In this document: positions 79 to 5,341 of the stretch, piece after piece
Position numbering within the stretch: position 1 is the stretch's first letter
Layout of the letters: every line of letters begins with the position of its first letter
Source: a bacterium
Lineage (GTDB): Bacteria > UBP15 > UBA6099 > DSWB01
Direction of reading: 5' to 3'
Assembly (NCBI GenBank): GCA_020061125.1
Contig: JAGUYV010000430.1
Coordinates: 1-5,729, forward strand
DNA length: 5,729 nt
The notes under the pieces: generated by a model
Told to the model about the DNA's origin: nothing
Databases searched by the model: none
The model's input: the letters and a program-made list of their open reading frames with translations, nothing else
Program-made: the position numbers and the translations under genes

Positions 79-546
79 TCATTCTTCATCAAGTGTGAAT
101 TCAATCCCGAGCGTGTAGCTTCCCGGCTGGTCGGCCCAGTTGGTGTTCAGCAACACATCCAGATCAATGACCGCATCGCCCGTGCCGGTGGCTACGATCT
201 GGTCCAGGATGTCCGCGGGTTCGTATGCGCCCGATCCGTCCAGGCGCCAGAGAAGGTCCGTGGCGGGTTTTGCGCCCGCGGCGGAGGTCATGAAATCTGG
301 GGTGCGTGCGCGCAGGGACAGGGTCCAGTTTGCGGCGCCGGTGTCCTGGATGACGATGCGCAGAGCGTAGGACATGGCTGCGGGATGGCGCTCGATGAAG
401 CCGAGGCCGAGATCCGCGGCGCGCGCCTGCCCGAAATTCACCACCGTGGCGTCCGCTGTCATGGACAGTTCCGCGCGCGCGGGCGCGGCGCAAACAACCA
501 GTGCGGCCAGGGCCGCGGGAATCATGGCCCGGAGCGCGCGTGTCAT
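79..546 (-). CDS. Small secreted beta-rich subunit (WxL-like or pilin-like)
   Basis: This 155-aa protein has a signal peptide of about 25 residues ending in Ala-Arg-Ala before Glu26, so the mature form is about 130 residues and exported. It contains no cysteine after the signal. Visible motifs are Asn-Trp-Thr-Leu-Ser-Leu at 73-78, LDGSGAY at 102-108, and a C-terminal strand PGSYTLGIEFTL at 141-152. The same layout occurs in the 167-aa protein at 1858-2361, so the two are probably distant paralogues. The W-T-L and the terminal F-T-L strand recall the two motifs of Gram-positive WxL domains; a pilin-like beta-sandwich is the alternative. Its ATG overlaps the stop of the chaperone-like gene as ATGA, implying translational coupling, with AAGGAG 10 bases upstream. 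Export and operon membership are secure; the exact family is inferred. Confidence 0.82.
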   Translation of the reverse strand: MTRALRAMIPAALAALVVCAAPARAELSMTADATVVNFGQARAADLGLGFIERHPAAMSYALRIVIQDTGAANWTLSLRARTPDFMTSAAGAKPATDLLWRLDGSGAYEPADILDQIVATGTGDAVIDLDVLLNTNWADQPGSYTLGIEFTLDEE

Positions 547-1397
547 CGCTCGTCAGCTCCTTGCGCACCGGGCTGCGGCAACGGGATCTCAAAGCGCGTC
601 TCGCCGGCCACAAGGTTGTCGCCGCCATAGTCCAGAACCGCCAGGGCGAGATATTCACCAGCAGGAAGCGGACCCTTCACGCGCGTATCCACCCAGATGG
701 ACTTGCCGGGAAATATATAGAATTCCTTGATCCCGGTTTTCAGCACGGATACGCCGTCCAGGGTGCGGATGTCCATGTAACCCAGGGGTTTCAGATAGTA
801 ATTGCCGGTGTTCTCGAACAGGATGCTGATGCTCATGCCGTCCTCGATCGCGGCATCCGGGGCGGGGGGTGCGGCTTTCATGCCCGCGATCCGGCCCTGC
901 ATGTTCGCACTGTCCTTGATGTTGACCACAAAGCGCGCGGCGTAGCGCAGCTTTGCTCCGATGAGCACCTGGCGGTGCGCGTCGTCTCCCTCGGGTTTCT
1001 CGGGACGGTTCTGGCCCTCGGCCATGACAAAGCTCCAATAGGAGCCGGAGGCGTCCATGGGAACCGTGAAGGAATACTTCACGACCTGCTCTTCACCGGG
1101 CCGCAGATCGAGTTGCGTCGGGCTGATGGAGAGCCAGGCGCTGCAGGTTCCGGGCAAAGAGCCGGGCGGGTTGGGGGTATACACGCCGTCCGGACCGCGG
1201 TCCCAGTCCAGGGCGTAAATGGTTATGGACTCGGGCTGCGCGCCGCCGGACACGCGGAACTGGCCCACGAAGGTCTGGCCCGGCTCTGCGTTAATCTCCA
1301 CCACAAGGGGAGCAATATTGAATGCGCGGGCCGGGAGCGCCGCGGCAACAAGCGCGGCCAGAACAATGATTAATCGAATCGGGATTTGGCGGTTCAT
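543..1397 (-). CDS. Two-domain periplasmic PapD/DUF916-like protein
   Basis: This 284-aa protein has a signal peptide cut after Ala-Arg-Ala at residue 25. Residues 26 to about 165 look like a PapD-type Ig domain: an opening strand FNIAPLVVEI, PGQ at 39-41, WLSISPTQLDLRPGEE at 88-103, and VP...GSYWSFV at 112-124. Residues about 168-272 form a second beta domain (FENTGNYY at 194-201, FPGKSIWV at 229-236, PAGEYLALAVLDYGG at 245-259). Two Ig-like domains fit periplasmic pilus chaperones. The order and phrase pattern also resemble WxL-interacting proteins (DUF916/DUF3324), but no C-terminal membrane anchor is present. It is flanked by small secreted subunits, which suggests that it folds, caps or anchors them. 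The start has a strong AGAGGAG 7 bases upstream. The family label is inferred from pattern reading, without a profile search. Confidence 0.78.
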   Translation of the reverse strand: MNRQIPIRLIIVLAALVAAALPARAFNIAPLVVEINAEPGQTFVGQFRVSGGAQPESITIYALDWDRGPDGVYTPNPPGSLPGTCSAWLSISPTQLDLRPGEEQVVKYSFTVPMDASGSYWSFVMAEGQNRPEKPEGDDAHRQVLIGAKLRYAARFVVNIKDSANMQGRIAGMKAAPPAPDAAIEDGMSISILFENTGNYYLKPLGYMDIRTLDGVSVLKTGIKEFYIFPGKSIWVDTRVKGPLPAGEYLALAVLDYGGDNLVAGETRFEIPLPQPGAQGADER

Positions 1398-1426
1398 GAC
1401 AAACTCCTCTTTTTAGTAGTGGCCGC

Positions 1427-1440
1427 GCCGGTTATCCGGC
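1427..1440 (-). other. Small GC hairpin between STAS and chaperone-like genes
   Basis: GCCGG and CCGGC form a perfect 5-bp stem with a 4-base loop just after the STAS stop codon. In the direction of transcription it is followed by an A-rich stretch and the AGAGGAG ribosome site, not by a T-run, so it is not an intrinsic terminator. It might mark an mRNA processing or stability point. It is small and could be chance. Confidence 0.3.
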
Positions 1441-1441
1441 G

Positions 1442-1780
1442 TCAGCAGGCCATTCGCTGGCAGGCGCACGGCGCGGCGCGGCGCACGCACAGAATGCCGT
1501 CGAGCTTATAGCGGAAAAAAATGGATGCGATCTCCCGCCGCGGGTTCACGATGGCCATGCTGCCCCCCCGCGCCTCGATTCTTCCCTTGAGACGCAGCAG
1601 GAATCCGATGCCCATGCTGTCTATGAAGTTCACGGCCGCAAGGTCCATTTCCACGGCTGTGCCGGGTCCGGTCCAGGCCAGAATGTCGCGCTCGAAATCG
1701 CGGATGTCATACCCGATCAGCTCCCCCGCGGGAGCCGCCGTGATGCTGTGTTCGCGTCTGATGATTGTGTATGTCAGCAT
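1442..1780 (-). CDS. STAS-domain protein (anti-sigma factor antagonist-like)
   Basis: This 112-aa cytoplasmic protein has no signal peptide or membrane segment and has the usual size of SpoIIAA/RsbV-type single STAS domains. The hallmark segment FIDSMGIGFLLRLKGRI lies at 52-68. Ser55, after Asp54, matches the serine phosphorylated in SpoIIAA and RsbV, both in motif and in position. The following GGSMAIVN strand and a helix ending near 96 complete the fold. In that family the unphosphorylated form binds an anti-sigma kinase, or another partner, and releases its target. No kinase or phosphatase gene is visible here. The last 15 residues carry four cysteines (98, 105, 107, 112), which is unusual for the family. 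The ribosome site GAGGGG lies 9 bases before the ATG. Sitting between surface-protein genes, it may control their synthesis or assembly. Confidence 0.87.
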   Translation of the reverse strand: MLTYTIIRREHSITAAPAGELIGYDIRDFERDILAWTGPGTAVEMDLAAVNFIDSMGIGFLLRLKGRIEARGGSMAIVNPRREIASIFFRYKLDGILCVRRAAPCACQRMAC

Positions 1781-1798
1781 GATGGGAGTCCCCTCTAT

Positions 1799-1860
1799 AA
1801 AACTGACCCGGCCGGCCCTGCGGGCGCGGCGTGCGCGCCCGCAGGGTCCGCTCGGGGTCA
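1799..1860 (-). terminator. Long GC hairpin with T-run, probable intrinsic terminator or attenuator
   Basis: A perfect 12-bp inverted repeat, ccctgcgggcgc at 1816-1827 against gcgcccgcaggg at 1835-1846, extends to 13 bp with a 5-base loop. An outer 6-bp arm pairs 1804-1809 with 1855-1860, and that arm includes the TGA stop of the 167-aa gene. In the minus transcript the structure is followed by G and then TTTTAT. It lies between the first subunit gene and the STAS gene, with no fresh clear promoter before the latter. Partial read-through would give much more of the first subunit than of the downstream products, as is common for major structural subunits. The T-run is short, so efficiency is uncertain. 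Confidence 0.7.
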
Positions 1861-2361
1861 GTCCACCACGATGGTGTAGGTGAGGTCTGTTGAGTAGATG
1901 CCCGGCGTGTCCGAAGAGAACAGGAGCAGCCGGTAGTTGATGCTGTGCAGCTCGTTGGTGGCGGGCGCCTGTTCGTCCAGAACGGTTATCGCGTTTGTGC
2001 CGTCGAGCTGGTGTGCGTATGTGCCCGCGCCGTCCAGGTCCACGAACAGTTCGCGGGTGCTTTTGGTGTTCGATCCGCCGATGAACAGATCGTTGCTGGC
2101 TTCCACGGTGATGTCGAAGAAATCATTGGAGCTGGCGCTGATGATGCCGCCGTTGATGGCGTCCTTGTATCCGGCGGACAGCTCGGCGGCGGTGATGGAA
2201 TTCGCGCCCGTGAGTTGCACGCTGGCGCCGCTCACCCACCATGTCAAATCCAGGATCGGCGGGATTTCCACATTCATGTCCACGGACAGCGATGTGCCCG
2301 CCGCGGCCTTGGCCGAAACCAGCAGTACCAGGAGCGTGATGATTGACAGCAGTTTTTTCAT
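1858..2361 (-). CDS. Small secreted beta-rich major subunit (pilin-like or WxL-like)
   Basis: This 167-aa protein is first in the minus-strand cluster. A signal peptide (MKKLL, hydrophobic core to about residue 16, then SAKAAAG) probably cuts after residue 19 to 21. The mature part is cysteine-free, rich in Ser/Thr/Asp/Asn and hydrophobic beta strands: SLSVDMNVEIPPILDL at 24-39, FFDITVEASNDLFIGG at 81-96, ELFVDLDGAGTY at 104-115, and a final strand DTPGIYSTDLTYTIVVD at 151-167. The last two elements match the 155-aa protein of the same cluster. An alternating-residue N-terminus plus a strong C-terminal strand would suit donor-strand polymerisation, but that is inference. It has the best ribosome site in the cluster (GGAGGT, 8 bases before ATG) and a terminator directly after its stop, both suggesting high expression. 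I do not recognise a precise family. Confidence 0.85.
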   Translation of the reverse strand: MKKLLSIITLLVLLVSAKAAAGTSLSVDMNVEIPPILDLTWWVSGASVQLTGANSITAAELSAGYKDAINGGIISASSNDFFDITVEASNDLFIGGSNTKSTRELFVDLDGAGTYAHQLDGTNAITVLDEQAPATNELHSINYRLLLFSSDTPGIYSTDLTYTIVVD

Positions 2362-2809: not shown

Positions 2810-3925
2810 ATGACAAAAACAAAACGATTTGTGCTCGTGCTGATTGCGGCCCTGGCGTGCGTATGGAGCGCGCGAGCGGTTGCGTATGCGGTTGAGGCGC
2901 AAACAGGAGGCGCCGCCGCGTGTGCGCTCGCCCCGGATCCTGGACCGTGCAAGGGCCTGTTCGAGAAATTCTACTTCGACGCCAAATCCGGCACATGCCG
3001 CAGTTTCTTTTACGGCGGATGCCAGGGCGTGGTTCCGTTTGAAACCATCGAGGAGTGCCGCGCCGCATGCGAACAGACCGGGGCCTTGCGGCTGTCGTAC
3101 AGGATTTCGGAAAGGCCGGGACCGGCCATGTTCGTGGATGTGCTGTATCCCAATGGCTGGGACGAGCCGGAGATTTCGCTTACAGTGAACGGAGCGCCCG
3201 CAACCGCGCGGCGCGCGGGCGGCGGGTTCGACACCGAGTCGCAATTTGCAAGTTTCTTGCTCGCGCCGGGCGCGGCCGGAAACAAGGAGATCGTCGCAAA
3301 AGCCGCCGCCGGAGACAAGTCCGGCGAGGCGCGCACCGCCGTGTTCTGGAATCCGGATCCCCTGATTGCGCTTCTGGATACGGGCGGCCTCAATCAGGCC
3401 GTGCTCGAGCCGGGCGCGCTGCGGATTCTGGCCTGGCAGGCGCAGAATGTGAGCGCGAGCTTCAACGGCGCGCCGCTGGAGTTGAAAGCCGAGCGGCAGG
3501 ACGCGGCCCTGGGAGATATCCTCGCTGCGTCTCCGGCCTGGCAGCAGGGGCTGAACACCCTGTCCGTGAAGGCGCGCGCCATGAACGGCGGCGAGATCGC
3601 CGAGGAATTCACCTTTGTGAACATGGCCAAAGGCCAGCTCGCCCTGCACCACACCGCATCGCTCGTTTACGGCGAAGTGGGCAGCAAAAGCGGGCCGTTC
3701 TACCGCATCGAGACGGACGGAGACGCCCTGTCATTGCAGGACGACAATTTCGGCGAGATATTCGCGCTGGACGACGAAGGCTGGCTTTTCCCCAAACAGG
3801 TGCTGACCGTGACCCTGGCCCCCCAAGCGCCGGGCAAGAGCACGCTGCGCATCTACAAGAAAGAGCATTTCACCCAGGGCGAAACCCTGCTGCGAGAGAT
3901 TCCCGTGACCGTCGCCGGGAAGTGA
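2810..3925 (+). CDS. Secreted Kunitz/BPTI-domain protein with Ig-like repeats
   Basis: This 371-aa protein starts at an ATG 9 bases after GGGGGA. A Sec signal peptide ends near residue 23 (Ala-Arg-Ala) or 27 (Ala-Tyr-Ala). Residues 38-87 form a Kunitz/BPTI domain with cysteines at 38, 47, 63, 71, 83 and 87, spaced 8-15-7-11-3 against 8-15-7-12-3 in BPTI. GPCKG at 45-49 is the reactive loop with Lys48 at P1, and FFYGGC at 66-71 is the family signature. In known Kunitz inhibitors a P1 Lys directs binding to trypsin-like serine proteases. Residues about 122-181 and 214-271 are two similar beta modules, each opening with NGAP (127 and 219) and ending in Phe-x-Asn. Residues 275-371 are a further beta-rich segment of unknown family. 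The product is probably periplasmic or released. It is a monocistronic gene, divergent from the surface cluster. The protease target is unknown. Confidence 0.92.
   Translation: MTKTKRFVLVLIAALACVWSARAVAYAVEAQTGGAAACALAPDPGPCKGLFEKFYFDAKSGTCRSFFYGGCQGVVPFETIEECRAACEQTGALRLSYRISERPGPAMFVDVLYPNGWDEPEISLTVNGAPATARRAGGGFDTESQFASFLLAPGAAGNKEIVAKAAAGDKSGEARTAVFWNPDPLIALLDTGGLNQAVLEPGALRILAWQAQNVSASFNGAPLELKAERQDAALGDILAASPAWQQGLNTLSVKARAMNGGEIAEEFTFVNMAKGQLALHHTASLVYGEVGSKSGPFYRIETDGDALSLQDDNFGEIFALDDEGWLFPKQVLTVTLAPQAPGKSTLRIYKKEHFTQGETLLREIPVTVAGK
2921..3070 (+). other. Region coding the Kunitz/BPTI inhibitor domain
   Basis: This stretch codes residues 38-87 of the secreted protein, from the first to the sixth cysteine. 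The expected pairing by homology is 38-87, 47-71 and 63-83. The loop between the fourth cysteine and the conserved Phe (Phe77, BPTI Phe45) is one residue shorter than in BPTI, and the usual Asn at BPTI position 43 is not evident. All other hallmark residues (Gly-Pro-Cys-Lys, Tyr-Gly-Gly-Cys, Glu before the fifth Cys) are present. Confidence 0.9.
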
Positions 3926-3940
3926 CGCGCCGCGCGTCAC
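3922..3940. repeat. Perfect palindrome shared by two convergent stop codons
   Basis: GTGACGCG at 3922-3929 and CGCGTCAC at 3933-3940 are perfect inverted repeats separated by three bases. The left arm contains the TGA of the Kunitz-protein gene and the right arm the TGA of the transporter gene, leaving only 11 bases between the two coding ends. The hairpin would form in both transcripts and could help to end or protect either mRNA. Neither side has a T-run, so it is not a standard intrinsic terminator. Confidence 0.55.
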
Positions 3941-5337
3941 GCCCTGAAGAAAAGATATGACATTGCGGCGAACAGCGGAAGCAGGAACGCCGCGGCCCAG
4001 CCAAGATACCCCAGGAACGAGGGCATGGAAACCTCGTTTTCCTCGCAGATGGATTTGACCATGAAATTGGGCGCATTGCCGATGTAGGACACAGCGCCGA
4101 AGAACACCGCGCCCATGGAGATGGCGAGCAGGATGTGCTGGGGCACGCAGCCTCCGGCCACGGCCACGCAGCCCTCGCCGCCCATGGTTTTGGCCAGAGA
4201 CAAGAATGTCAGGTATGTGGGCGCGTTGTCCAGCATCGCGGACAGCCCGCCTGTCATCCAGAAATACTGCCATGCGTATCCCAGAGACAGCGCGCCCGTG
4301 GCGCCCTTGTGCTCGAGAATGTTCAGCGCGGGGATCATGCACGCGAAAATCGCGGCGAACAGCACGGCCACTTCCTTGACCGGAAACCAGGTGAATCCAT
4401 TTTCGCGGCGCAGCGCCGCCGGGGTGGTCTTGAGGGCAAGCGCGGCCATGAGACCCATGAGCGCAACCTGGATCGCGTCCCTCGCGAAACCCAGCTCTTT
4501 CATGTCTCGCAGAACCGTGCCGTAGAAGATGACCGTTCCCATGACCCCGAGCAGGAACAGAAAATTGTGCGCGCCCGCAATCGCGAATTTCTGGGGCGGC
4601 TCGTCCGCGGCCTGGTCTCCGGAGATCAGGCCCCCGTCTCTTTTGAGAATCAGCGTGTCAAGAACGAAGAACACCGCCAGCAGAACGGCCGTGGCCAGCG
4701 CCCAGCCGGGCAGCATGTATATCAGCGTCCACTCGAACGGAACCCCCTGAAGAAAGCCCAGGAACAGGGGCGGGTCGCCCAGGGGCGTGAGGGAGCCGCC
4801 GATGTTGCTCACAAGGAAAATGAAGAATACGAAGATATGAATTTTCGTCTTTCGGTTTTTGTTGATGCGCAGCATGGGGCGGATCAGCACCATGGACGCG
4901 CCCGCGGTTCCGATGAAGCTGGCCACAACGGAGCCCGTGAGCAGGAACGCGCTGTTTGTCAGCGGAGAGCTTTTGAACGAGCCGCGCACCAGAATGCCGC
5001 CGGAAATCACGAAAAGCGATCCCACCAGGGCGATGAACGAGCAGTATTCCACAAGCACATGCAGAGATTTGTCCGGAAGGATGACCGCCATGAGCACAGC
5101 CATGGGCAATCCGAATGCAAGGCTCACTTTGGGAAAGTTGTGATGCCACCAGTGCGCGTTGATGAGCGGGAGCAGGGCGATGCACAGCAAAATGCCCGCA
5201 AATGGCAGAACCCAGACAGGAGACATGTCCACAGGCGCGCTGCCCGCGGCCAGGGCCGGCGAGGATGCGCCTGTAAGCGTCAGCGCTGCGATAAGCGCCG
5301 TGAATCCAATGCTGGCATAAAACTTACCGGTAGTCAT
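3937..5337 (-). CDS. CitMHS/NhaD-like membrane ion transporter (putative Na+/H+ antiporter)
   Basis: The 466-aa product is very hydrophobic, with roughly 11 to 13 membrane segments after an N-terminal signal-like stretch ending SSPALAAG near residue 32. It belongs to the ion transporter superfamily. The motif SNIGGSLTPLGDPP at 177-190 corresponds to the NhaD/ArsB/CitM signature, and it is echoed in the second half by MLDNAPTY at 368-375 and SYIGNAPNF at 417-425, as expected for two inverted halves with re-entrant loops. The fit seems best to the 'putative citrate transport' group (CitMHS_2) often annotated as sodium:proton antiporter. Substrate cannot be read from sequence: Na+/H+ exchange or organic-anion uptake are both possible. 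The ATG at 5337 is preferred over TTG at 5340, because AGGAGG ends 4 bases before the ATG but only 1 base before the TTG. It is a single-gene unit. Confidence 0.9.
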   Translation of the reverse strand: MTTGKFYASIGFTALIAALTLTGASSPALAAGSAPVDMSPVWVLPFAGILLCIALLPLINAHWWHHNFPKVSLAFGLPMAVLMAVILPDKSLHVLVEYCSFIALVGSLFVISGGILVRGSFKSSPLTNSAFLLTGSVVASFIGTAGASMVLIRPMLRINKNRKTKIHIFVFFIFLVSNIGGSLTPLGDPPLFLGFLQGVPFEWTLIYMLPGWALATAVLLAVFFVLDTLILKRDGGLISGDQAADEPPQKFAIAGAHNFLFLLGVMGTVIFYGTVLRDMKELGFARDAIQVALMGLMAALALKTTPAALRRENGFTWFPVKEVAVLFAAIFACMIPALNILEHKGATGALSLGYAWQYFWMTGGLSAMLDNAPTYLTFLSLAKTMGGEGCVAVAGGCVPQHILLAISMGAVFFGAVSYIGNAPNFMVKSICEENEVSMPSFLGYLGWAAAFLLPLFAAMSYLFFRA

Positions 5338-5341
5338 CAAT

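What the first reader, a model, noticed from the sequence alone, without database searches (positions are those of the whole stretch)
2810..3925. Bacterial secreted protein with a near-canonical Kunitz/BPTI inhibitor domain
Kunitz domains are overwhelmingly animal proteins. Here six cysteines, GPCK with Lys at P1, and YGGC are retained at almost BPTI spacing, behind a bacterial signal peptide and in front of Ig-like repeats. It may be a periplasmic or released serine-protease inhibitor, either for self-protection or for interaction with protease-bearing hosts, prey or neighbours. Lateral transfer from a eukaryote followed by fusion is one origin; a rare bacterial lineage of the fold is another.
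Basis: partly seen in the sequence, partly recalled or inferred. Interest (0 to 1): 0.85.

Follow-up and report, generated by a model that had tools for sequence, protein, structure and literature searches.

The report
Kunitz-type protease inhibitor in a bacterium
An uncultured bacterium carries a gene for an exported protein with a genuine animal-style Kunitz (BPTI-like) protease-inhibitor domain; such domains turn out to be rare but scattered across many bacteria, so this is an unusual member of a known family rather than a new kind of system.

Summary
ORF 2810-3925 (+), 371 aa, encodes a signal sequence followed by a genuine Kunitz/BPTI domain at residues 37-88 (PF00014, 52 bits against a cut-off of 21; predicted fold 1.1 Å from the APP Kunitz domain), with Lys at P1. 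The mature protein has exactly six cysteines, all in this domain. The contig is bacterial: composition and codon use match its genome, and the neighbouring transporter is 78% identical in order-mates.

"Overwhelmingly animal" needs qualifying. A scan of about 85,000 prokaryote genomes gave 45 stretches with a true six-cysteine domain, mostly Myxococcota. PF00014 occurred in 5.5% of sampled Myxococcota and about 1% or less elsewhere. A published Acinetobacter example inhibits factors Xa and XIa. Origin by transfer from an animal is neither shown nor excluded; 50 residues resolve little.

The unusual detail is a one-residue-shorter loop (CQGVVPF, no Asn43). It recurs in Myxococcota, Patescibacteria and Pseudomonadota but not in the solved Kunitz chains listed. 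The 280-residue C-terminal part is orphan and beta-rich; "Ig-like repeats" is unproven. Most likely it is an exported, perhaps membrane-anchored, trypsin-type inhibitor aimed at foreign proteases; activity is untested.

The parts
2810..3925 (+). Whole gene: exported Kunitz-domain protein, 371 aa
   Evidence: ORF; PF00014; codon use like the genome; only PF00014 match in its genome
2810..2890 (+). Signal sequence, about residues 1-27; candidate signal peptidase I sites ARA|V or AYA|V, or a possible lipobox ALAC with Cys17
   Evidence: Sequence inspection; lipobox-like regular expression match; no signal-peptide predictor available
2918..3073 (+). Kunitz/BPTI domain, residues 37-88, six cysteines
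   Evidence: PF00014 52 bits, 56.2 bits; AF2 pLDDT about 90 over most of the domain; VIA-align Z 9.6, rmsd 1.1 A to 1aap
2942..2965 (+). Reactive-site loop GPCKGLFE, P1 = Lys48
   Evidence: Alignment to BPTI and TFPI
3020..3040 (+). Short loop CQGVVPF (residues 71-77), one residue shorter than CxGNxNNF and lacking the BPTI Asn43 equivalent
3074..3922 (+). C-terminal orphan, beta-rich region, fold unresolved
   Evidence: No Pfam at E 10; no homologue of the protein in the phylum; AF2 pLDDT 48 alone
3940..5340 (-). Neighbouring convergent CitMHS_2-family transporter; not part of the inhibitor, but shows that the contig belongs to the lineage
   Evidence: PF16980 503 bits; 77-78% identical orthologues in four order-mates

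Best explanation
The gene encodes an exported, possibly membrane-anchored, standard-mechanism serine-protease inhibitor. After export the six cysteines form the three BPTI disulfides, which hold the GPCKGLF loop in a substrate-like shape. Lys48 enters the S1 pocket of a trypsin-like protease and blocks it. The orphan C-terminal region probably holds the inhibitor at the cell envelope or binds a partner. The likely target is a foreign protease (from a predator, host or neighbour), because the S1-family proteases read in its own genome are HtrA-type. Shown: the domain, its predicted fold, basic P1, genomic context and a VKOR gene for disulfide formation. Inferred: export route, anchoring, inhibition and target.
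For: PF00014 over cut-off; TFPI, SmCI, boophilin and bikunin are the best PDB sequence matches; predicted fold matches BPTI-family structures at Z 9-9.6; P1 Lys with P1' Gly, the GPC loop and YGGC kept; six cysteines in the mature protein, all in the domain; VKOR in all 7 genomes of the phylum including its own; the own-genome S1 proteases examined (2 of 3) are HtrA-like with GNSGGP; of 37 other bacterial Kunitz proteins with a readable N-terminus, 15 matched a rough lipobox rule and 22 another signal or TM segment; recombinant Acinetobacter Kunitz domains with P1 Arg inhibit factors Xa and XIa at nanomolar Ki (PMC11511053).
Against: No activity data. The short loop lacks the near-invariant Asn43 and could alter stability or the secondary binding loop. 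Many Kunitz domains are not inhibitors (channel ligands, adhesion modules), and about half of the bacterial ones here have Asp or Glu at P1 (42 of 83), so inhibition is not guaranteed for the bacterial class. No protease gene or obvious partner lies next to it on this short contig.
Confidence: 0.68

Rival explanations
1. The Kunitz domain is a binding or adhesion module of a surface protein with no inhibitory role; the C-terminal beta region does the main work.
For: Kunitz domains sit in multi-domain cysteine-rich proteins in other bacteria (e.g. L009, L020), and half have acidic P1. The C-terminal region is five times longer than the domain.
Against: This domain keeps Lys at P1, Gly at P1' and the GPC and YGGC loops, the features of active trypsin-type inhibitors; only 22 of 83 bacterial domains have a basic P1.
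Confidence: 0.2
2. On origin: recent transfer of an animal Kunitz exon, fused to a bacterial secreted protein.
For: Absent from the six other genomes of its phylum held; best PDB matches are animal proteins, as expected since the PDB holds few others; with the loop columns removed its nearest rows are some animal domains, without support.
Against: The short VPF loop is shared with Myxococcota, Patescibacteria and Pseudomonadota proteins and with none of the 60 solved chains listed (2jot has a different gap); composition and codon use are native. A positive control, animal-like DNA in Defluviimonas, groups cleanly with bikunin (95*), whereas the window groups with no animal row with support.
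Confidence: 0.12
3. Contamination: eukaryotic or foreign DNA binned into this genome.
For: Fragmented draft, 513 contigs, 79% complete; the contig is only 5.7 kb; such contamination exists elsewhere (L007).
Against: Uninterrupted ORF with a bacterial signal sequence, tetranucleotide correlation of the contig 0.973 with the genome, and a flanking transporter 77-78% identical in order-mates.
Confidence: 0.02

Closest known systems
Animal Kunitz/BPTI domains (PF00014; TFPI, APP, BPTI, boophilin)
   Same: Six cysteines, GPCK loop, YGGC, same predicted fold (Z about 9-9.6), 32-48% identity
   Different: Loop after the fourth cysteine one residue shorter (CQGVVPF) with no Asn43 equivalent; bacterial gene, orphan C-terminal region
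Bacterial Kunitz proteins of Myxococcota, Planctomycetota and Bacteroidota (loci L003-L048)
   Same: Exported or lipoprotein-like bacterial proteins with a full six-cysteine domain; up to 53% identity
   Different: Mostly canonical GNxNNF loop and acidic P1, sometimes several domains per protein; the window has one domain, P1 Lys and the short loop
Short-loop bacterial domains L118 (Patescibacteria), L130 (Myxococcota), L148 and L149 (Pseudomonadota)
   Same: Same loop length and VPF motif; 39-48% identity
   Different: P1 is Lys in L118 but Asp, Arg and Gln in the others; Trp in place of Tyr before GGC; no shared C-terminal region seen
Acinetobacter baumannii F6W77 (KABP1-5; PMC11511053)
   Same: From a bacterial genome, secreted, six-cysteine Kunitz domains; some with basic P1 and measured inhibition
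   Different: Five domains and no orphan C-terminal region described; whether that gene is native to Acinetobacter was not tested here

Membership tests
Kunitz_BPTI (PF00014) | Profile score above the curated cut-off | tested here: met
   52 bits against 21, full profile 1-53
Kunitz_BPTI (PF00014) | Six cysteines in the BPTI order | tested here: met
   Cys 38, 47, 63, 71, 83, 87, near-BPTI spacing; actual disulfides not measured
Kunitz_BPTI (PF00014) | BPTI fold | tested here: met
   Predicted model, pLDDT about 90 over most of the domain, Z 9.6 and 1.1 A to 1aap
Kunitz_BPTI (PF00014) | Conserved GxNNF segment with Asn43 (common, not defining of the family) | tested here: not met
   CQGVVPF, one residue shorter
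MEROPS I2 / trypsin-type Kunitz inhibitor | Basic residue at P1 in an exposed GPC[KR] loop | tested here: met
   GPCKG
MEROPS I2 / trypsin-type Kunitz inhibitor | Inhibition of a serine protease | not testable with these tools
   No biochemistry available
Bacterial lipoprotein | Lipobox with lipidated Cys | tested here: inconclusive
   ALAC at 14-17 fits a loose pattern; signal peptidase I sites are also present
Ig-like domain proteins | Ig-like domain profile or fold in the C-terminal region | tested here: inconclusive
   No Pfam match at E 10; models too weak to judge

The most novel reading that the evidence does not exclude
The short-loop VPF Kunitz domains form an old bacterial subfamily, spread over at least four phyla, that keeps active protease inhibition without the Asn43 that is near-invariant in animal domains, and so represents a bacterial branch of the fold independent of recent animal transfer.
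Probability: 0.3. Interest if true: 0.55.

Novelty: new member of a known kind. Interest (0 to 1): 0.38.

Why it matters
BPTI-like inhibitors are textbook animal proteins. A basic-P1, exported version in a poorly known bacterial phylum, with a loop variant shared among distant bacteria, adds to evidence that bacteria keep their own stock of Kunitz domains. It offers a natural test of which residues the fold needs, and of what proteases bacteria guard against.

Tried and rejected
Close relatives by back-translated peptides in genome contigs: none. Plasmid and phage records: no match. Viral contigs: no pattern match. Tree without loop columns: grouping of short-loop rows lost, so I do not claim one origin. 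Synteny: none of the window's other proteins except the transporter has a match beside the relatives' transporter genes. C-terminal region: no Pfam, no NCBIfam or PHROG match for the whole protein, weak model, so its model was not used for fold search. Contamination was considered and rejected. An eLife paper mentioning Kunitz was about DNase units.

Full report
What is there. The ORF 2810-3925 (+) encodes 371 residues. Pfam finds one family in it, Kunitz_BPTI, at 52 bits against a cut-off of 21 and E 7.8e-14, covering the whole profile at residues 37-88. Its cysteines are 17, 38, 47, 63, 71, 83 and 87: one in the signal region and six in the domain. The N-terminus (MTKTKRFVLVLIAALACVWSARAVAYA) reads as a signal sequence; a lipobox-like ALAC is possible but no predictor was available. 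Chance is not a plausible explanation.

Fold. AlphaFold2 with 35 bacterial Kunitz domains as alignment gives pLDDT near 90 over most of the domain (81 in the block that holds the short loop). VIA-align matches BPTI-family structures at Z 9.6, rmsd 1.1 Å over 55 residues for the APP domain, and similar for BPTI. Foldseek on the whole model lists Kunitz domains with probability 1.00 but E about 0.003, diluted by the poorly modelled remainder. The remainder is beta-rich; by itself it models at pLDDT 48 and has no Pfam match. 'Ig-like repeats' is therefore possible but not shown.

Genome. The window is a whole 5,729-base contig (C334) of a draft genome of 513 contigs, 79% complete. Tetranucleotide correlation with a sample of its genome is 0.973, within the range of other contigs; the gene alone gives 0.902, above the median of equal pieces. 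Codon use is ordinary. The convergent CitMHS_2 transporter has 77-78% identical orthologues in four order-mates. Contamination is unlikely. The gene is the only PF00014 match in its genome, and none of the six other genomes of the phylum has one.

How rare in bacteria. A DNA pattern for the Kunitz core in 84,980 species genomes gave 46 stretches, 45 with a true six-cysteine domain. One of these (L007) is probably animal DNA, see the list of things noticed. Most are Myxococcota; others are labelled Planctomycetota, Bacteroidota, Proteobacteria and Roizmanbacteria. PF00014 was found in 18 of 329 Myxococcota, 1 of 343 Planctomycetota, 3 of 379 Patescibacteria above the cut-off, 3 of 319 Pseudomonadota including the L007 genome, and 3 of 386 genomes around the window's own, itself included; the phylum samples include the genome used as centre, so they slightly overstate rates. 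Among 38 carriers, matches per genome ran from 1 to 10.

The short loop. After the fourth cysteine, animal domains read CxGNxNNF. The window reads CQGVVPF, one residue shorter, without the Asn43 equivalent. The same length and VPF motif occur in L118 (Patescibacteria), L130 (Myxococcota), L148 and L149 (Pseudomonadota), and a related IPF in L120. A profile of the five short-loop domains found 125 solved sequences; in the 60 listed, the matched chain stretch is one residue longer than the query stretch, except 2jot, which has a different gap. On all columns the five fall on one side of a branch together with L034 (SH-aLRT 92); with the loop removed they do not. The shared loop could be one event or repeated. 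Origin is open.

Likely working. Lys48 at P1 with Gly at P1' in a GPC loop, as in BPTI, TFPI and the like, predicts a trypsin-type inhibitor. Of 83 bacterial domains readable at P1, 27 have Asp, 15 Glu, 15 Arg and 7 Lys, so the window is among the minority built like a trypsin inhibitor. VKOR, a disulfide-forming enzyme, is present in its genome. Of three S1-family proteins in the genome the two read are HtrA-like; HtrA enzymes prefer small aliphatic P1 residues (own knowledge), so a foreign target is more likely than an own one. This is inference.

Precedent. Sun et al. 2024 (PMC11511053) express five Kunitz domains from an Acinetobacter baumannii genome; KABP1 inhibits factor XIa (Ki 12.4 nM) and Xa (Ki 7.1 nM), with P1 Arg as the likely key residue. 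They call it the first bacterial Kunitz anticoagulant. I did not test whether that gene is native to Acinetobacter. No other paper centred on bacterial Kunitz domains was found in the library; the library is partial.

Verdict. A real, native-looking bacterial Kunitz gene, a new member of a known family with a mildly unusual loop.

Noticed in passing
L007 (Defluviimonas aestuarii JCM 18630, 4,002-base contig): Encodes a lipocalin-like stretch followed by two Kunitz domains, like the animal AMBP/bikunin precursor; its first domain groups with human bikunin domain 1; contig GC 0.506. Probably animal DNA in a named bacterial genome.
   Followed up: partly
Bacterial Kunitz set: About half of the bacterial Kunitz domains have Asp or Glu at P1 (42 of 83), unusual for trypsin inhibitors; their targets or roles may differ from those of animal domains.
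   Followed up: no
window 82-2361 (-): Three small exported, apparently beta-rich proteins (155, 284 and 167 aa) with no Pfam or NCBIfam family, plus a STAS-domain protein, in one orientation and divergent from the Kunitz gene.
   Followed up: partly
window 3922-3940: Perfect palindrome GTGACGCG-CCG-CGCGTCAC between the convergent Kunitz and transporter genes, no T run; may be a two-way terminator.
   Followed up: no
L009 (Planctomycetota) and L020 (labelled Deltaproteobacteria): Proteins with four or more Kunitz-type domains in one open frame, far more than the window's one.
   Followed up: no
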